The notes under the pieces: model-generated
What the model was told of the DNA's origin: nothing
Database searches by the model: none
Seen by the model: only the letters and a program-made list of their open reading frames with translations
Program-made: the position numbers and the translations under genes
NCBI GenBank assembly: GCA_037439705.1
Contig: JBBIVP010000139.1
Span: 1-5,739 of the forward strand
Length of the DNA stretch: 5,739 nt
Direction of reading: 5' to 3'
Source of the DNA: JBBIVP01 sp037439705 [NCBI: bacterium]
GTDB lineage: Bacteria > JBBIVP01
Part shown: positions 1-5,664 of the stretch, in pieces
Numbering within the stretch: position 1 is the first letter of the stretch
Layout: every line of letters begins with the position of its first letter

Positions 1-927
1 GGAAAATTATACGCTTCGGGTTCTAAAGACGCACCTTCCTGCAAAACATGTCATGGAACTCACGGGGTTACAAAATTAACTAAGTTGATGAGTTCAGAAA
101 TCTGCTTCAATTGTCATTCAGACAGAAAAGTTGAAGAAAAATACAATCTTCCAGGGATTGAATTCATACAGGCATATAAAAATAGTATCCATGGAAAGGC
201 TGTTTATAATCTTGGAGTGTTAAAAGCACCGGTATGCAGTGACTGTCATAATTCCCATCTTGTGTTACCTCCTGATGACCCATTATCAATTATTAATAAG
301 AAAAATATTCCATTATTATGTGGTAAATGTCATTTATCCGAAAAGGAGGACTATCTTAACAGTATTCACGGAACTGCAATTCAAAAAAATATTAAAGAAG
401 CACCGGTTTGTACCGATTGCCACGGAGAGCATACAATTTCAATTGTAACTGACCCTGATTCTAAGGTTTCACCAAAAAATTTGCCTTATACATGTTCAAA
501 GTGTCATGACGATGTTGTGCTTGTAGAAAAATTTGGATTCAAATCAAGACGCTTCACCTCATATCTGAATACATTCCACGGTGTGGCAAATGTTTATGGT
601 TCTACCACCGCTGCCAATTGTGCTTCCTGTCATGGGTATCATTCTATTCTACCTTCTTCTGATCCGCGTTCTTCCATACATCCTGATAATATTCCAAAGA
701 CATGCGGTAAATGTCATCCGGGGGCTGGAATTAATTTTGCAAAGGGACCGGTTCATGTTGAAGCAACTCCAGATGTTTCAAAACCTGCATACTATGTAAG
801 CACCTTTTATACATGGTTTATCGGAATATTGTGCGTGATGTTCTTCATCCACATAATAATTGATTATGCAAGTTACAGAAAAAAGAAAAAATCCTTTATA
901 AGGGAGAGAATAGATGGAAGACAATAA
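1..927 (+). CDS. Membrane-anchored multiheme cytochrome c (5' partial, 8 hemes visible)
   Basis: The reading frame is open from base 1 and already holds a heme site (CKTCH, bases 40-54) upstream of the first ATG at 85, so the true start lies outside the window. The visible 308 residues contain eight CXXCH sites, at residues 14, 35, 79, 107, 137, 165, 207 and 235. They sit in repeats of the form S-I/F-H-G ... A-P-x-C-x-D-C-H-G-x-H ... C-x-K-C-H, where the S-x-H-G histidines are likely distal heme ligands. One transmembrane helix (about residues 264-287) is followed by a basic tail (RKKKK), so the hemes should face the periplasm and the C-terminus the cytoplasm. It aligns throughout with hemes 2-9 of the gene at 1606, so roughly 60 residues (signal peptide and one heme) are probably missing. 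It overlaps the cytochrome b gene by 14 bases. Likely role: periplasmic electron-transfer partner of that cytochrome b; the redox partner is unknown. Confidence 0.93.
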   Translation, partial: GKLYASGSKDAPSCKTCHGTHGVTKLTKLMSSEICFNCHSDRKVEEKYNLPGIEFIQAYKNSIHGKAVYNLGVLKAPVCSDCHNSHLVLPPDDPLSIINKKNIPLLCGKCHLSEKEDYLNSIHGTAIQKNIKEAPVCTDCHGEHTISIVTDPDSKVSPKNLPYTCSKCHDDVVLVEKFGFKSRRFTSYLNTFHGVANVYGSTTAANCASCHGYHSILPSSDPRSSIHPDNIPKTCGKCHPGAGINFAKGPVHVEATPDVSKPAYYVSTFYTWFIGILCVMFFIHIIIDYASYRKKKKSFIRERIDGRQ

Positions 928-1609
928 AAATAAAAACGAAGAGTTTGTTGAAAGAATGAATCTTAACCTCAGGATTCAACACATAATATTGTTTCTTTCC
1001 CTTATAATTCTTGCAATTTCTGGACTCGCTCTGTATTTTCATGACACATGGTTTGGAAGATTTTTAATCCAACTTGAGGGAGGAATTGAAGCAAGGGGAA
1101 AAATTCACAGGTTTTCAGCAATTGTTCTCATTATTTTAAGTATATACCATGTAATTTATATTGTCTTCTCCGAGGAAGGACACAGCGAATTTTCTAAGCT
1201 TCTCGTCCGCCTGCAGGACTTTAAAGATTTTCTAACTGACATTCTTTACACTCTGAATATATCTCCAAATCATGCTGAGTTTGAAAAATACAGTTACAGA
1301 GAAAAGTTTCAGTACTGGGGTGTAGGTGTGGGAGTGATAATAATGATTTTTACCGGATTAATTCTCTGGTTTCAGGATATTGCTATGGCTGTCTTGCCAA
1401 AATGGTGTATTGACCTGACATTTGTAATTCATGGTGGTGCAGGACTTGTTATATTCTTTCTCCTTTTTATCTGGCATCTTTATGATGTTCATTTATCGCC
1501 ATTTAATTTTCCGATGAATTCGGTGTGGCTCACAGGAAAAATTTCTCTTGATAAACTTAGAAAAACTCATTACAAGGAATTTCTAAAAATCACTGGAGAA
1601 AGGAAGTGA
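914..1609 (+). CDS. Cytochrome b, di-heme FdnI/HydC-like membrane subunit
   Basis: This 231-residue integral membrane protein has four predicted helices, about residues 24-41, 66-85, 134-152 and 170-189. Histidines lie in the pattern of formate dehydrogenase gamma/hydrogenase cytochrome b subunits: H23 (RIQH), H65 (KIHR), H79 (YH), H173 (VIHG), H188 (IWH) and H193 (DVH). By family analogy, four of these bind two b hemes across the inner membrane, and the protein exchanges electrons with quinone. All six are conserved in the paralogue at 2643. The ATG at 914 is preceded by an AGGGAGAG ribosome site at 901-908 inside the preceding gene, and the 14-base overlap implies translational coupling. 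The length is normal for the family. It most likely forms a quinone-oxidoreductase module with the multiheme cytochrome encoded just upstream. The direction of electron flow cannot be read from sequence. Confidence 0.9.
   Translation: MEDNKNKNEEFVERMNLNLRIQHIILFLSLIILAISGLALYFHDTWFGRFLIQLEGGIEARGKIHRFSAIVLIILSIYHVIYIVFSEEGHSEFSKLLVRLQDFKDFLTDILYTLNISPNHAEFEKYSYREKFQYWGVGVGVIIMIFTGLILWFQDIAMAVLPKWCIDLTFVIHGGAGLVIFFLLFIWHLYDVHLSPFNFPMNSVWLTGKISLDKLRKTHYKEFLKITGERK
1595..1608 (+). promoter_or_regulatory. Ribosome binding site supporting the GTG start of the nine-heme cytochrome
   Basis: GGAGAAAGGA precedes GTG at 1606, with GGAG seven bases upstream. The GTGA overlap with the previous stop codon is a classic translational-coupling arrangement. 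The predicted signal peptide begins directly at this codon (MKFTHFLLL), which supports the start. Confidence 0.75.
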
Positions 1610-2670
1610 AATTTACTCATTTTCTTTTACTAATTCTAATACTTCTTATGCCATCCGGGTTGAATGCAACAATCTCTATACAAAAATGTATGATATGCCA
1701 TGGTAAACCCGGGTTCAAGAAGGTTGAAGAAAGCGGTAAGATGAAGGAATTGTATGTAAATTTTTCAGTGCTTGAAAATTCAGTTCATAAAAAGAAGGTA
1801 TGTACTGATTGTCATGCTGATGTTGTTGAAATTCCGCACAGACATACTCCGGAAAAGGTTAAGTGTATAAGATGTCATTATAAGGGTAATCCCGAAGGGG
1901 CTCCTCAATCAGACAAATATCTTGAATATCAGAAAAGTGTTCATGGAAGGGAGTCCGAAAAAGGCAATCCGAAAGCGCCAGTATGTCAGGAATGCCACGG
2001 AAATCACGATATCAGACATACAAAAGATGCCCTCTCAAGGGTTAGTAAGTTGAATGTACCCAAAACTTGTGGGCGCTGTCACATGGATATTTACGCACAG
2101 TATGTAAAAAGTATTCATGGTAAATCATTACTTGTTGAGCATAAGCAGGATGCACCAAGTTGCACTGATTGCCATGGAGAGCATAACATTCTTGCTCCTG
2201 AAGAAAGTGAGTCCACGGTAAATCCTGTGAATGTTGTTAAAACATGTGCCCACTGTCATGAATCTGTGGATATCGTTGGCAAATATGGAATTGAAACAAC
2301 TCAGGTTTCTCTTTATGAACACAGTTTTCACGGAATTGCGGTGAAGTATGGTTCAAAGAAAGTTGCAAATTGCGCATCCTGTCACGGGACCCATAATATT
2401 CTTCCTCCTGAAGACCCTGATTCTCCTGTAAACATAAACAATATACCTAAGACATGTGGAAAACCGGAATGCCATCCCGGGGCTAATAAGAATTATGCTA
2501 AGGGAAAAATCCATGTAAATCCAAAGAGCAGGGAATCCGGGGTGATTTACTGGACGGGTTTGTTTTTCAAATACCTTACTATACTTACTATGATGGCTCT
2601 TGTTATTCATATTCTTCTTGATTTGAACCGGAGGTCAAAGGAATGGCGGGAACAGAAGAAAAAACCGTAA
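1606..2670 (+). CDS. Nine-heme membrane-anchored cytochrome c
   Basis: The 354-residue protein starts at GTG, which overlaps the stop of the previous gene as GTGA. A hydrophobic signal peptide covers about residues 1-21. Eight CXXCH sites start at residues 28, 66, 87, 127, 155, 186, 214 and 256. A ninth, at 284-290 (CGKPECH), has the wider CX4CH spacing. Conserved S-V/I/F-H-G histidines (H61, H113, H171, H242) probably supply distal ligands. A C-terminal transmembrane helix (about 314-338) contains H335 and ends in a basic tail (NRRSKEWREQKKK), so the hemes are periplasmic and tethered to the inner membrane. It is a clear paralogue of the cytochrome at 1-927. It overlaps the next cytochrome b gene by 28 bases and probably forms a complex with its product. 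Nine hemes followed by a cytochrome b recalls the Geobacter CbcL layout split in two; that comparison is from memory. Confidence 0.93.
   Translation: MKFTHFLLLILILLMPSGLNATISIQKCMICHGKPGFKKVEESGKMKELYVNFSVLENSVHKKKVCTDCHADVVEIPHRHTPEKVKCIRCHYKGNPEGAPQSDKYLEYQKSVHGRESEKGNPKAPVCQECHGNHDIRHTKDALSRVSKLNVPKTCGRCHMDIYAQYVKSIHGKSLLVEHKQDAPSCTDCHGEHNILAPEESESTVNPVNVVKTCAHCHESVDIVGKYGIETTQVSLYEHSFHGIAVKYGSKKVANCASCHGTHNILPPEDPDSPVNINNIPKTCGKPECHPGANKNYAKGKIHVNPKSRESGVIYWTGLFFKYLTILTMMALVIHILLDLNRRSKEWREQKKKP
2630..2645 (+). promoter_or_regulatory. Strong Shine-Dalgarno fixing the long N-terminus of the second cytochrome b
   Basis: GGAGGT at 2630-2635, inside the 3' end of the preceding gene, lies seven bases before ATG 2643. 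It decides between this start and the internal ATG at 2958, which would give a 232-residue protein like the paralogue. The site indicates that the 105-residue extension is translated. Confidence 0.75.
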
Positions 2671-3656
2671 AAAAGGTGTCTACAAAACCAGAAATTGAAG
2701 AGTCATTTCTGAACGAAATAAGGGAGGAGGTGATTGCCAGGATTCAGGAATTATTGATTAAGGATGAAAAAATACCTGAAGACATAAAGGAAAAAGTCGT
2801 TCAAGAAATAAATGAAAAACTTCCTGAAATTGTTGCAAAGAGGGTGGAGGGAGTAAAAGAAGAAATCATAAAAGAATCAATAAACCTTGCTGTAACCTCC
2901 AGAAAAGAACTTCTTGCTTTGTACAGAAAAAAAGAAAAAGAGAAGGAAAAAGAAGAAATGTTCCAGCGTTTCAACATTCATTTCCGTATACAGCACATGA
3001 TTCTATTTACAAGCGTAATATTTTTAATTCTGACTGGACTCCCGCTCAAATTCCCTGGTTTTTCCCCGGTAGCGTTTCTCGTTGATGTTTTTGGAGGTAT
3101 TGACAATACCAGGATTATTCACAGGATAGCCGCCTCACTACTTGTTCTATTTATGATTTATCATACTCTCTATACAATATTTCATCACGAAGGAAGACGC
3201 GATTTTTGGCTCTTATTGCCGAGAATAAAAGATATAAAAGATGTAATTCAGAATCTAAAGTATTTCTTCGGAATGACAGATGAAAAACCAAAATTCGGAA
3301 GATTCTCCTATGTTGAAAAGTTTGATTACTGGGCTGTTTACTGGGGTTGTGTAATAATGATTGGTTCAGGGATTTTGATGTGGTTTGAGGAGTTATCCTT
3401 AAAAATACTCCCGAAGTTTATTCTGGATGCAGCAAAGGAGGCACATAGCGATGAAGCACTTCTCGCCACGCTCGCAATTGTAATCTGGCACTTTTACAAT
3501 GTCCATTTTAATCCTGATAAATTCCCTGGCAGTTTAACCTGGTTTCATGGAAAAATTACAAAAGAAGAGATGATAGAACACCATCTTCTTGAGTATGAAG
3601 AGATAATGCGAAAAAGAAAACAGGTAACGGAGGAGAGATTAAATAACAATGGGTAA
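2643..3656 (+). CDS. Cytochrome b (FdnI/HydC-like) with long charged cytoplasmic N-terminal extension
   Basis: Residues about 106-337 are a four-helix cytochrome b paralogous to the protein at 914. Shared landmarks are RIQH (H118), IIHR (H160), YH (H174), H268, IWH (H283), NVH (H288) and the tail F-P-x(4-5)-W-x-x-G-K-I. Predicted helices are about 117-134, 160-180, 229-247 and 270-285. Residues 1-105 have no counterpart in the paralogue. They are hydrophilic, rich in Glu/Lys/Ile, probably helical or coiled-coil, and end in a KEKEKEKEE run just before the membrane domain; topology puts them in the cytoplasm. The ATG at 2643 is supported by a strong GGAGGT ribosome site at 2630-2635 and by the frame staying open without stops. 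Likely role: quinone-linked di-heme subunit paired with the nine-heme cytochrome upstream. The extension might dock a cytoplasmic partner or drive oligomerisation; no known domain is recognised. Confidence 0.9.
   Translation: MAGTEEKTVKKVSTKPEIEESFLNEIREEVIARIQELLIKDEKIPEDIKEKVVQEINEKLPEIVAKRVEGVKEEIIKESINLAVTSRKELLALYRKKEKEKEKEEMFQRFNIHFRIQHMILFTSVIFLILTGLPLKFPGFSPVAFLVDVFGGIDNTRIIHRIAASLLVLFMIYHTLYTIFHHEGRRDFWLLLPRIKDIKDVIQNLKYFFGMTDEKPKFGRFSYVEKFDYWAVYWGCVIMIGSGILMWFEELSLKILPKFILDAAKEAHSDEALLATLAIVIWHFYNVHFNPDKFPGSLTWFHGKITKEEMIEHHLLEYEEIMRKRKQVTEERLNNNG
3629..3651 (+). promoter_or_regulatory. Ribosome binding site with long spacing before the 18-heme gene
   Basis: GGAGGAGA at 3629-3636 is the only purine-rich site before ATG 3649, leaving 12 bases, longer than the usual 5-9. 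An in-frame TAA at 3640 excludes an earlier start. The spacing may lower initiation, or initiation may depend on ribosomes terminating at 3656. Confidence 0.55.
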
Positions 3657-5664
3657 TCTTCGTGAAATACTGAAAAATTGGTGGAGAACCCGAAGAGATT
3701 TAACCCGTGGTTTGTTAATTGCGTTCTTGATTATTGCAGGACTATTCATTATAACCAATCTTACCTTTTTTGGCACATCTTTTTTTCCATCTTTATGCAA
3801 TGTATGCCACATTATGCGCCCCTATTATGAATCATGGAAAACATCATCTCACAATATGACTGGCTGTGTAAGATGTCATCCCTTCAGACCCGGATTTATT
3901 ACAACCGCGATATTGAAATATTTTACCGGTACTTATAATCCAAGACCCCATGCAATTATAGACGACTCATCATGTTTGAGGTCCGGCTGTCACAGTGAGC
4001 GACTCAAAAACGGAAAAACAACTTTTAAGGAAGGCATTATCTTTGACCACGACATTCATGTAAGCAAGACAAAACGGGGTGAAAAATTAAGATGTGCAAC
4101 CTGTCACTCCCAGATTGTTCAGGGTGAACATATTTCAGTAGATGAAAAGATCTGTTTTCTCTGCCACTTCAAAGGTGCTCAGAAGGGTCAATCAATTACT
4201 GGCTGTCCCTCCTGCCATGGTGTTCCTAAAAAAATTGTTGAACACGAGGGGTTCTCCTTCAGTCATGAATCGTATCTTAAAATTGGCGTAGCCTGTAACC
4301 AGTGCCATATAGAGGTATCAGCCGGAGATGGAAAGGTGCCTGAAGAAAAATGTCACTTCTGCCATATACCAAGAAAGAAGGCAGAGGTTGATTTTGTTAC
4401 ACTGCATAGAATTCATGTTACAGAAAAGGAAATATATTGTTTCAATTGTCATGAAGAGATAAAGCACGGAGGAATACGCCTTGTGCAACCCTTTGAAGTA
4501 CGGTGCGAATCGTGTCACAAGAAAAAACATTCGCCACAGAAAGAACTTTACATGGGTGTAAGCGGAAAAGGCGTAAGAAATATACCGAGCAGGATGTTTG
4601 CTGCACAGGTAAGTTGTGATGGATGTCACACATATTCTAACGGCAGAGAGGAAAGATATAAATCAATTAAAAATGCCTGCGTTAATTGTCACGGAAAAAA
4701 ATACGACCTAATGCTGGATGACTGGAAGAGCGAAATAAATAACGCTCTTTATTATGTTAAAAATTTAATGAATGATGCTGAAAAATTGCTTAAGAGCGAT
4801 TTACTAAAAAAAGAAAAATATCAGGGTATAAGGGAATTACTTGAAGATAGTCTTTTCAATTACAATCTTGTAAAAACAGGGAAGGGGGAACACAATGTGG
4901 AATATGCGGTAAAGTTGCTATCAGCATCCATAGACCAGTACGAAATAGCAAAAAAATCAATAACGCCAGGATTTTCTATAACTAACAGACCCGATGTTTT
5001 AAAAGAGCCCGATGGATATTGTACAAGACTCTGTCACACTCGCCTTGGCCTCCCCGAGAAAAAATTCTTTGAAGAAATGCATATTGATTTTCCTCATCGT
5101 CTGCATGCTGAAGAAATGGGTCTCGGTTGTGCAACATGCCATTCTCCTGAAAAACACAAGATGAGAATCATAACAAAAGACGGATGTATGGACTGTCATC
5201 ATGGTGGAGATAGTTTCAATTGCAGGAAGTGTCATCCTTTTCAGACAGAATTGTTCAGGGGAGAATTTAAGGTGAAAAAAATAACCCCAGATGTAATGTT
5301 TAAAGCGGGGCTTAAATGCACTGATTGTCATAATTTTAAGGAAAAGATGCACACTGTAGAGACCATTAAAGATAAGTGTGTTGAATGTCACGAAAAGGGA
5401 TACGATGAACTTTTGATTAAATGGGAAAAGGACCTTCTGCAGGCAGAGAGTGACCTTACACTTAAAGTGAGTGAACTTAAAGAAAAGATAGAAACAAGCA
5501 AACTTCTTGGAAAACAATTGCCAAAAAATGCTGAGGAACAACTTAAGAAGGCTGAAATTATTCTAAAAGCAACGGGTGAAGGTAGAGGAGTGCACAATTA
5601 TACAGAAAGTATAAAATTGTTGCAGGAAGCTGTAAAAGAGATTGAGGAAATTTTGAAAAAATAG
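3649..5664 (+). CDS. NapC/NirT-type membrane-anchored cytochrome c with 18 potential hemes and duplicated heme/helical modules
   Basis: The 671-residue protein has a basic N-terminus and one transmembrane helix (about 21-40). A NapC/NrfH-like start follows: CNVCHIM (50-56, Met56 placed like the NrfH axial Met), an RPYYESWKTSSH stretch, then CVRCHP (73). Standard CXXCH sites start at 50, 73, 149, 169, 186, 216, 235, 264, 286, 323, 344, 494, 513, 525, 557 and 577. Two are non-standard: CX4CH at 109-115 and CX3CH at 458-463. Paired F-x-H-x-x-H type histidines before several sites look like distal ligands. Residues 235-440 and 458-671 are homologous: a heme cluster followed by about 90 residues of helix with a G-x-x-H-N motif (H415, H649). 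NapC relatives oxidise membrane quinols; here the long heme chain suggests a periplasmic wire. No catalytic CX2CK site of nitrite reductase is present. ATG 3649 is the only plausible start, since an in-frame stop lies at 3640. Confidence 0.92.
   Translation: MGNLREILKNWWRTRRDLTRGLLIAFLIIAGLFIITNLTFFGTSFFPSLCNVCHIMRPYYESWKTSSHNMTGCVRCHPFRPGFITTAILKYFTGTYNPRPHAIIDDSSCLRSGCHSERLKNGKTTFKEGIIFDHDIHVSKTKRGEKLRCATCHSQIVQGEHISVDEKICFLCHFKGAQKGQSITGCPSCHGVPKKIVEHEGFSFSHESYLKIGVACNQCHIEVSAGDGKVPEEKCHFCHIPRKKAEVDFVTLHRIHVTEKEIYCFNCHEEIKHGGIRLVQPFEVRCESCHKKKHSPQKELYMGVSGKGVRNIPSRMFAAQVSCDGCHTYSNGREERYKSIKNACVNCHGKKYDLMLDDWKSEINNALYYVKNLMNDAEKLLKSDLLKKEKYQGIRELLEDSLFNYNLVKTGKGEHNVEYAVKLLSASIDQYEIAKKSITPGFSITNRPDVLKEPDGYCTRLCHTRLGLPEKKFFEEMHIDFPHRLHAEEMGLGCATCHSPEKHKMRIITKDGCMDCHHGGDSFNCRKCHPFQTELFRGEFKVKKITPDVMFKAGLKCTDCHNFKEKMHTVETIKDKCVECHEKGYDELLIKWEKDLLQAESDLTLKVSELKEKIETSKLLGKQLPKNAEEQLKKAEIILKATGEGRGVHNYTESIKLLQEAVKEIEEILKK
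4351..4962 (+). repeat. Internal duplication unit A of the 18-heme cytochrome
   Basis: Protein-level repeat covering residues 235-438: heme sites 8-12 followed by a helical, heme-free segment (about 352-437) with the GKGEHN motif. The heme 11-12 part (MFAAQVSCDGCH ... KNACVNCHGKKYDLMLDDW) aligns clearly with MFKAGLKCTDCH ... KDKCVECHEKGYDELLIKW in unit B. The similarity is at protein level only, so the duplication is old. Confidence 0.8.
5020..5661 (+). repeat. Internal duplication unit B of the 18-heme cytochrome
   Basis: Protein-level repeat covering residues 458-671, matching unit A in order: heme sites 13-18, then a helical tail (about 585-671) with GEGRGVHN. It carries one more heme site than unit A (CRKCH at 525), and its first site is CX3CH where unit A has standard CHFCH. 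Confidence 0.8.

What the first reader, a model, noticed from the sequence alone, without database searches (positions are those of the whole stretch)
3649..5664. NapC/NrfH-type anchor fused to a very long multiheme chain
NapC/NirT proteins usually carry four or five hemes in about 200 residues. Here the first two heme sites and the axial-Met position look NapC-like, but the chain continues to 18 potential sites. One polypeptide would then combine quinol oxidation with a long periplasmic wire, removing the need for a separate soluble acceptor.
Basis: partly seen in the sequence, partly recalled or inferred. Interest (0 to 1): 0.6.

Follow-up and report, generated by a model that had tools for sequence, protein, structure and literature searches.

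The report
NapC-headed 18-heme membrane cytochrome
This gene encodes a membrane-anchored protein that joins a quinol-oxidising type of head to a body of about fourteen further hemes, in a gene set conserved across many uncultured bacterial phyla; it is probably part of how these bacteria move electrons out of the inner membrane.

Summary
ORF 3649-5664 (671 aa) has one N-terminal membrane helix and 18 heme sites: 16 CXXCH, one CX4CH, one CX3CH. All 36 cysteines are used. The unusual sites are genuine: relatives have CX2CH at the same positions. The N-terminus is related to NapC/NrfH (profile against D. vulgaris NrfH, E 3.6e-12), although the window protein alone scores below the curated cut-offs. 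The rest is not a plain wire: residues 228-455 and 456-671 are a tandem duplication (profile E 2.4e-43) of an OcwA/NrfA-type heme core with helix bundle, without CXXCK. I found 27 relatives in 26 loci from about ten phyla, all metagenome-assembled genomes; in 24 of 26 a multiheme/cytochrome b pair, split or fused, directly precedes it, and CbcL-like, sometimes ImcH-like, genes lie near. Tail length varies (15, 18 or 27 sites) behind a constant head and first core. Best reading: a membrane-anchored quinol:cytochrome oxidoreductase or electron hub whose exchangeable tail extends the heme path. That no soluble acceptor is needed is unsupported. Quinone contact, direction of flow and heme spacing were not shown. 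New variant of a known kind.

The parts
3649..5664 (+). 671-aa, 18-heme-site NapC-headed cytochrome (called N18 here)
3694..3786 (+). single membrane helix, residues 16-46
   Evidence: hydropathy; helix 2-43 in the model
3649..4116 (+). NrfH/NapC-like head, residues 1-156, heme sites 1-4
   Evidence: TIGR03153 23-156 against profile 4-136 of 138, 37.5 bits; head profile hits NrfH 2j7a_C E 3.6e-12 over the membrane helix and sites 1-2
3796..3816 (+). heme site 1 with axial-Met-type motif CNVCHIM (residues 50-56)
   Evidence: Met in 20 of 27 members
3973..3993 (+). heme site 3, CX4CH (residues 109-115)
   Evidence: CX4CH in 24 and CX2CH in 3 of 27 members
4021..4329 (+). linking region, residues 125-227, sites 4-7, distantly related to module B
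   Evidence: hhalign E 4e-12 against module B
4330..5013 (+). module A, residues 228-455, sites 8-12 and helix bundle, OcwA/NrfA-type
   Evidence: family profile positions 214-440 hit OcwA 6i5b, whole-sequence E 1.7e-20; positions 311-443 hit NrfA 8bcx
4528..4530 (+). invariant His294, aligned with a His of an HHPH stretch in OcwA
   Evidence: 27 of 27; alignment
4594..4596 (+). invariant Met316, seven residues before site 11, where OcwA has Met and NrfA 8bcx has His
   Evidence: 27 of 27
5014..5661 (+). module B, residues 456-671, sites 13-18 and helix bundle; duplicate of module A
   Evidence: score 209 against a shuffle maximum of 133 with C/H fixed; hhalign E 2.4e-43; fold rows MccA Z 12.7, OcwA 12.1
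5020..5037 (+). heme site 13, CX3CH (residues 458-463)
   Evidence: CX3CH in 25 and CX2CH in 1 of 26 members
5296..5298 (+). Met550, module B counterpart of Met316
   Evidence: 16 of 17 rows; aligned with Met316 and with OcwA Met
2643..3656 (+). b2: cytochrome b (Ni_hydr_CYTB/formate-dehydrogenase-gamma type) with about 100 extra N-terminal residues
1606..2670 (+). c2: 8-CXXCH cytochrome with N- and C-terminal hydrophobic segments
914..1609 (+). b1: cytochrome b of the same type as b2
1..927 (+). c1: cytochrome cut by the window start, 8 CXXCH seen, C-terminal hydrophobic segment; 41% identical to c2

Best explanation
N18 is the NapC/NrfH-headed cytochrome of a multi-subunit inner-membrane quinol:cytochrome c oxidoreductase system. 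Its N-terminal helix and sites 1-4 form an NrfH-like head at the periplasmic face that would take electrons from menaquinol, from its b/c neighbours, or both. Electrons then pass through sites 5-7 to two tandem OcwA/NrfA-derived heme cores that conduct rather than catalyse, and leave at the far end to periplasmic or outer-membrane cytochromes. Shown here: head homology, 18 conserved sites, duplicated OcwA/NrfA-type cores, conserved gene neighbourhood, variable tail length. Inferred: quinone contact, direction of flow, continuity of the heme chain, partners, and a role in extracellular electron transfer.
For: NrfH is the best solved-structure hit of the head profile by eight orders of magnitude (E 3.6e-12; next 3.7e-4), over the membrane helix and sites 1-2 (profile of 21 members). 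PF03264 matches 24 of 27 members at E up to 0.1 (best 2.3e-9) and TIGR03153 24 of 27 at E up to 0.01 (best 7.6e-19). Specificity: among 8844 ORFs of the 80 loci, 270 with at least four CXXCH, the head profile (residues 15-95) ranks, after the family, a family fragment (L010), three other giants with such heads and 37 ORFs of 491-637 aa with 5-6 CXXCH (31-42 bits; the class of the ImcH-like P0001); other ORFs reach at most 30.3 bits (L022, also ImcH-labelled by BLAST) and then 25.4; in five column-shuffled controls the best hit was 9.5 to 25.9 bits once the fragment L010 (36.5 in one of them) is set aside. There are at least as many conserved candidate ligands (16 non-heme His in 60% or more of rows, Met316, Met550) as hemes other than heme 1 (17). 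No CXXCK occurs. Of 26 loci with a relative, 20 have the order c2-b2-N18 and the four Myxococcota loci a c2-b2 fusion directly before N18; 19 hold a CbcL-like gene (those four fusions included), 7 ImcH-like, 4 GSU2204-type. Of genomes whose c2 relative is 46-64% identical, 27 of 28 hold an N18 relative; of those tested with weaker c2 relatives, 2 of 16. Tail swap: same first 15 sites, then nothing, or module B, or (L023) six CXXCH pairs giving 27 sites.
Against: The window protein is below the curated cut-offs for PF03264 and TIGR03153, and TIGR03153 also gives 55 bits to a 25-CXXCH protein at residues 308-397, so that model responds to CXXCH repeats. Met56 is Ile in the closest relative and Glu in five others; no acid is conserved at the spacing of NrfH Asp89 (the only conserved acid between sites 2 and 3, Asp106, 25 of 27, lies three residues before site 3). 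The head-only structure found no match. His294 is invariant and aligns with an HHPH stretch of OcwA that I take for the motif above its open heme 5, so a catalytic site is not excluded. 54 of the 80 fetched loci carry CbcL-like genes, 31 of them ImcH-like genes too, without N18 on the fetched stretch, so such clusters do not need it.
Confidence: 0.53

Rival explanations
1. Membrane-tethered electron hub without its own quinone site: the NapC-like head only anchors the protein and electrons come from the adjacent cytochrome b/multiheme pair (b2/c2, where present b1/c1), which touches the quinone pool.
For: A c2/b2 pair, split (20) or fused (4, Myxococcota), stands directly before N18 in 24 of 26 loci; the axial-Met motif is not conserved, the closest relative has Ile; no acid at the NrfH Asp89 spacing.
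Against: Lys/Arg at residue 90 in 25 of 27 and Met56 in 20 of 27 are kept; P58 and H68 are invariant and W63 and S66 nearly so, more than a bare anchor needs. In L023 and L060 no c2-b2 pair directly precedes N18.
Confidence: 0.22
2. Fused NrfHA-like terminal reductase: the NrfH-type head feeds an OcwA/NrfA-type body that reduces a soluble substrate (nitrite, hydroxylamine or another) in the periplasm.
For: The modules match OcwA, NrfA and octaheme reductase in sequence, and module B also in fold. OcwA reduces nitrite slowly without CXXCK (PMC6703420, passages). His294 is invariant and aligns with the OcwA HHPH stretch.
Against: No CXXCK. In module B the aligned place is a heme-binding CXXCH, site 16. 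The chain ends after site 15 in 9 of the 25 A2 rows that reach that far and goes on as CXXCH pairs in L023, which suits conduction more than catalysis. There are enough conserved His and Met to give every heme but heme 1 a distal ligand, though this does not show that they do.
Confidence: 0.12
3. Same machine run backwards: electron uptake, with electrons entering from outside and reducing quinone (for example Fe(II) oxidation).
For: Sequence does not fix direction; CymA and CbcL-type relatives are reported in both Fe(III) reducers and Fe(II) oxidisers (PMC6295460, abstract).
Against: ImcH-like genes, reported only for quinol oxidation so far (PMC6295460, section), adjoin or lie near N18 in 7 of 26 loci.
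Confidence: 0.1

Closest known systems
NrfH / NapC / CymA quinol dehydrogenases (PF03264, TIGR03153)
   Same: Single N-terminal membrane helix, CXXCHXM at heme 1, SxH before heme 2, four sites in about 156 residues.
   Different: Fourteen further sites on the same chain; site 3 is CX4CH; Met not fixed in the family; below the curated cut-offs.
ImcH (Geobacter, 7 hemes)
   Same: NapC-type part; ImcH-like genes sit in the same gene cluster in 7 of 26 loci.
   Different: ImcH of Geobacter has three membrane segments, CX3CH next to them, six CX2CH and 495-519 aa (PMC6295460, section read); with the ImcH-like P0001 only the NapC part aligns.
ImdcA (Thermincola, inner-membrane decaheme)
   Same: Membrane-associated multiheme cytochrome proposed to oxidise quinol and pass electrons to other multihemes (PMC7911101, passages).
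OcwA (Thermincola, 6i5b) and NrfA / octaheme reductases / MccA
   Same: Heme spacing and C-terminal helix bundle of modules A and B; Met seven residues before the penultimate CXXCH as in OcwA.
   Different: OcwA is a nine-heme surface protein with one such core (PMC6703420, passages); here there are two in tandem behind a membrane head.
CbcL and Cbc-type cytochrome b/c complexes
   Same: Same neighbourhood; b2/c2 resembles a split version of the multiheme-plus-cytochrome b fusion, and a fused version replaces it in four Myxococcota loci.
   Different: N18 itself has no cytochrome b part.

Membership tests
NapC/NirT family, Pfam PF03264 | Score above the gathering cut-off (24.1 bits) | tested here: not met
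   Window protein 14.8 bits. The relative L023:577-2910 scores 57.9; 24 of 27 members match at E up to 0.1.
NapC/NirT family, Pfam PF03264 | One N-terminal membrane helix followed by CXXCHXM | tested here: met
   Met in 20 of 27 members
NrfH (TIGR03153 equivalog) | Score above the curated cut-off (134.2 bits) | tested here: not met
   37.5 bits over 23-156
NrfH / CymA quinol dehydrogenases | Charged residues at the quinone site (NrfH Lys82, Asp89) | tested here: inconclusive
   Lys/Arg90 in 25 of 27, Asp106 in 25 of 27, but Asp106 lies three residues before site 3; no structural alignment
NrfH / CymA quinol dehydrogenases | Predicted fold matches NrfH | tested here: inconclusive
   Head-only model pLDDT 64.3; no Foldseek match
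NrfH / CymA quinol dehydrogenases | Menaquinol oxidation | not testable with these tools
   Needs protein
ImcH | Three membrane segments, CX3CH at the site next to them, 6-10 sites, about 500 aa | tested here: not met
   One segment, CXXCH at site 1, 18 sites, 671 aa; definition from PMC6295460
NrfA nitrite reductase | CXXCK catalytic heme motif | tested here: not met
   None in the protein
NrfA/OcwA heme-core superfamily | Shared heme spacing with C-terminal helix bundle | tested here: met
   Sequence profile E 1.7e-20 to OcwA. Fold, about residues 510-671 only: VIA-align Z 12.7 MccA, 12.1 OcwA, about 8 to 10 octaheme and NrfA reductases, with unrelated helix bundles at 10.8 and 10.4 among them and the tool's warning that Z under about 13 can be common for helix bundles; the sequence match carries the verdict
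CbcL | Multiheme part fused to a cytochrome b membrane part | tested here: not met
   Single membrane segment; no PF01292 match

The most novel reading that the evidence does not exclude
A so far unnamed, cross-phylum class of inner-membrane quinol:cytochrome oxidoreductase in which an NrfH-type head and NrfA-derived, non-catalytic bodies are one polypeptide, and in which evolution tunes the reach of the heme chain by swapping the tail (15, 18 or 27 sites), so that a membrane-bound protein could carry electrons across much of the periplasm and hand them straight to an outer-membrane conduit.
Probability: 0.3. Interest if true: 0.72.

Novelty: new variant of a known kind. Interest (0 to 1): 0.5.

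Why it matters
Known NapC-type quinol dehydrogenases have four hemes (NrfH, CymA; passages) up to the 6-10 sites of ImcH homologues (PMC6295460 abstract), and hand electrons to separate carriers. A conserved family with 15 to 27 sites on one anchored chain, seen here only in metagenome-assembled genomes, could mark an unrecognised way of respiring, and its tail swaps are a natural experiment on what heme-chain length is for. It also joins relatives of NrfH and NrfA, normally two subunits of one complex, in a single chain.

Tried and rejected
Chance: rejected by shuffles and by conservation of all 18 sites. CX4CH and CX3CH as misreadings: rejected, because relatives interchange them with CX2CH at the same alignment columns. 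Fusion or frameshift artefact of this window: rejected, since long-form relatives of 647-698 aa occur in several lineages. ImcH or CbcL orthologue: rejected. NrfA-type catalysis by CXXCK: not present. A neat ligand budget of exactly 17 that I first noted does not hold: I had left out His518, which is kept in all 16 long-form rows, so the count is 16 His and 2 Met. A first claim that Myxococcota loci lack c2/b2 was wrong: there the pair is fused; the hub rival went from 0.20 to 0.22 and the best reading from 0.55 to 0.53 for that.

Led nowhere: the first genome-contig scan and a viral-contig scan with N18 found no relative, and the plasmid collection had none. No whole genome is held for the window, so its organism is unknown; the nearest rows by tree path are L002 (Poribacteria MAG) and L007 (Schekmanbacteria MAG), without starred support. 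Enlarging by phylum was not possible: the search returned only G001 itself. The head-only fold gave no match; NrfH is not among the rows, which tests only about residues 514-671. Promoter and terminator scans: 26 promoter-like sites against 18.9 (sd 4.7) expected, 3 terminator-like against 3.5, not used. Literature: ten searches of the held open-access library showed, in their listings and the papers opened, no description of an 18-site NapC-headed protein; most subscription papers and all preprints are not held. Papers: PMC6295460 abstract and one section; passages only of PMC7911101, PMC7829351, PMC12977616, PMC6703420, PMC9012536, PMC5317091, PMC10989804, PMC10654088, PMC4683180; the others search listings only. 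Rows dropped: L023 was left out of alignment A2 (27 rows) because its tail differs; the head alignment A3 used 21 of the 27; L024 (70.5 bits to N18) was not counted as a relative. 36 of the 80 loci's genomes were not searched. E. coli NrfA residue roles that guided me are recalled.
Full report
The window carries five + strand genes that overlap one another: c1 (1-927, cut by the window start), b1 (914-1609), c2 (1606-2670), b2 (2643-3656) and N18 (3649-5664). c1 and c2 are cytochromes with 8 CXXCH each in the part seen and a C-terminal hydrophobic segment, 41% identical. b1 and b2 are cytochromes b of the Ni_hydr_CYTB/formate-dehydrogenase-gamma type. The finding concerns N18.

Observation. 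N18 is 671 aa with one hydrophobic segment (16-46). It has 16 CXXCH, a CX4CH at 109 and a CX3CH at 458, and every one of its 36 Cys belongs to a site; shuffles gave at most 2 CXXCH in 2000. A scan of genome contigs with N18 alone found no relative; an alignment of c1 and c2 brought 80 loci (the best 80 of 246), of which 26 hold 27 relatives of N18 at more than 100 bits. Twenty-six of these and the window form alignment A2 (27 rows; L023 left out because of its tail). All 18 sites are conserved wherever a row extends that far, with one masked cell and one alignment stray; site 3 is CX4CH in 24 and CX2CH in 3 rows, site 13 CX3CH in 25 and CX2CH in 1; site 6 is CXCH in 5 rows, site 16 CX3CH in 4. 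The interchange at sites 3 and 13 is strong evidence that both unusual motifs of the window bind heme.

The head. Pfam PF03264 gives the window protein 14.8 bits, below its cut-off of 24.1, and TIGR03153 (NrfH) 37.5 bits over residues 23-156, below 134.2. Across the family PF03264 matches 24 of 27 members at E up to 0.1 (best 2.3e-9) and TIGR03153 24 of 27 at E up to 0.01 (best 7.6e-19). TIGR03153 also scores a 25-CXXCH protein at 55 bits in its middle, so I relied on better controls. A profile of the head (21 members) hits NrfH of D. vulgaris at E 3.6e-12 over the membrane helix and sites 1-2, with the next chain at 3.7e-4. Against 8844 ORFs of the 80 loci (270 with four or more CXXCH) the profile of residues 15-95 ranked, after the family, 37 ORFs of 491-637 aa with 5-6 CXXCH (31-42 bits), the class of the ImcH-like protein P0001 of L011, and three other giants; other ORFs reached at most 30.3 bits (L022, labelled ImcH-like by BLAST) and then 25.4. 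Five column-shuffled controls gave best hits of 13.1, 17.9, 25.9, 9.5 and 36.5 bits; the last is a fragment of the family itself (L010), the next best there 14.7, and the 25.9 is an ImcH-size ORF. With P0001 the family profile aligns only over the NapC part (E 1.5e-7). So the head is NapC-related by descent. It is not a curated-family member by score, and heme 1 may differ: Met56 is Met in 20, Glu in 5 and Ile in 2 of 27, and the only conserved acid between sites 2 and 3, Asp106, is not at the NrfH Asp89 spacing (NrfH roles from passages of PMC10654088 and PMC4683180).

The body. Residues 238-436 and 462-671 align with a score of 209 against a maximum of 133 in 200 shuffles that keep C and H in place; as profiles, modules A (27 rows) and B (16 rows) align at E 2.4e-43 and the linking region 125-227 aligns to module B at E 4e-12. 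The family profile matches OcwA at E 1.7e-20 (profile positions 214-440), NrfA of Geobacter metallireducens at 7.1e-5 (311-443) and octaheme nitrite reductase at 4.2e-4 (519-650). An AlphaFold2 model (27 sequences, pLDDT 75.3, pTM 0.46, weak over much of 40-340) has OcwA as first Foldseek row (E 2.2e-3; no row under 0.001), and VIA-align gives MccA Z 12.7, OcwA 12.1 and octaheme and NrfA reductases about 8 to 10 over residues 510-671; unrelated helix bundles at 10.8 and 10.4 lie among them and the tool warns that Z under about 13 can be common for bundles, so the sequence match carries the argument. Met316 (27 of 27) and Met550 (16 of 17) stand seven residues before a CXXCH where OcwA has Met and NrfA 8bcx has His; OcwA's last heme is His/Met (passages of PMC6703420), so hemes 12 and 18 are probably His/Met (inference). 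Sixteen non-heme His are kept in 60% or more of rows; with these two Met that is one more than the 17 hemes besides heme 1, and Met302 and Met355 are also fairly conserved, so ligands cannot be assigned by counting. His294 (27 of 27) aligns with a His of an HHPH stretch of OcwA, which I take for the HH motif above its open heme 5; in module B that place is itself a heme site, 16.

Variation. Members come in three lengths behind a constant head and first core: 15 sites (9 rows) and 18 sites (16 rows, one of them, L002, cut by its contig end after site 18, and one, L012, with a masked site), and in L023 27 sites, where six CXXCH pairs follow site 15. Two A2 rows (L007, L014) are cut before this point. 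The short form is mostly one clade (Zixibacteria, Calditrichota and kin) but the label needs at least two changes on the tree. Tails that come and go suit conduction better than catalysis.

Context. Of the 26 loci, 23 hold b2, 22 c2, 19 a CbcL-like gene, 13 c1, 12 b1, 7 an ImcH-like gene, 4 a GSU2203-type (one, L007, weak at 80-87 bits) and 4 a GSU2204-type gene, at more than 70 bits (labels). Twenty of 26 have the order c2-b2-N18, and in the four Myxococcota loci (L020, L022, L025, L026) the gene directly before N18 is a fusion of a c2-like and a b2-like part, counted above as CbcL-like. In the 54 loci without N18 on the fetched stretch, all hold CbcL-like and 31 ImcH-like genes (more than 100 bits), so N18 is not needed for such clusters; some of these genomes (L001, L010, L027) have N18 elsewhere. 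In genome searches for 44 of the 80 loci, 29 had a strong match: 27 of 28 genomes with c2 relatives of 46-64% identity but 2 of 16 with weaker ones. The record titles of the 26 loci name MAGs only, from Poribacteria, NC10, Acidobacteria, Aminicenantes, Schekmanbacteria, Zixibacteria, GN15, Calditrichaeota, Myxococcales, Omnitrophota, Fischerbacteria, Armatimonadota and others.

Mechanism. I propose a membrane-anchored quinol:cytochrome oxidoreductase or hub: head near the quinone pool, sites 5-7 as link, modules A and B as conducting cores, exit to periplasmic or outer-membrane cytochromes. Quinone contact, flow direction, heme spacing and partners are inferred. The rivals are a hub fed by b2/c2 only, a fused NrfHA-like reductase, and electron uptake.

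Novelty. NapC-type heads on longer chains are known (ImcH, 7 hemes; homologues 6-10), as is the inner-membrane decaheme ImdcA with a proposed quinol role. I found no description of this 15-27-site family in ten searches of the held library (calls listed under Tried and rejected), which lacks most subscription papers. I rate it a new variant of a known kind.

Noticed in passing
L024:14493-16397, L023:11885-13987, L041:7797-9725 (all Armatimonadota/Armatimonadetes MAGs): Three other proteins with an N-terminal hydrophobic stretch and NapC-like head (PF03264 16.9 to 22 bits, sub-threshold) followed by regular CXXCH pairs, 28, 32 and 28 CXXCH in 635-701 aa: more plainly wire-like than N18.
   Followed up: partly
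L023:577-2910: Hybrid: N18-type head and module A, sites 13-15, then six CXXCH pairs; 27 sites in 778 aa.
   Followed up: yes
L020, L022, L025, L026, L029, heme site 6: Five members have CXCH (one residue between the Cys) where the others have CXXCH; whether it binds heme is unknown.
   Followed up: no
L020, L022, L025, L026, heme site 16: Four Myxococcota members have CX3CH at site 16.
   Followed up: no
L020:9437-11818, L022:1931-4219, L025:9773-11812, L026:1-1644: c2-like and b2-like parts fused in one gene directly before N18, a natural fusion that hints the two work as one unit.
   Followed up: partly
L003:10432-11982 and 12223-14316: Two N18 genes in tandem, one short and one long form, in an NC10 MAG.
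   Followed up: partly
L011:2079-6952: GSU2203-type decaheme, GSU2204-type and ImcH-like genes upstream of the N18 operon.
   Followed up: partly
window 2643-2950: b2 has about 100 residues, rich in charged ones, before the part that the formate-dehydrogenase-gamma model matches.
   Followed up: no
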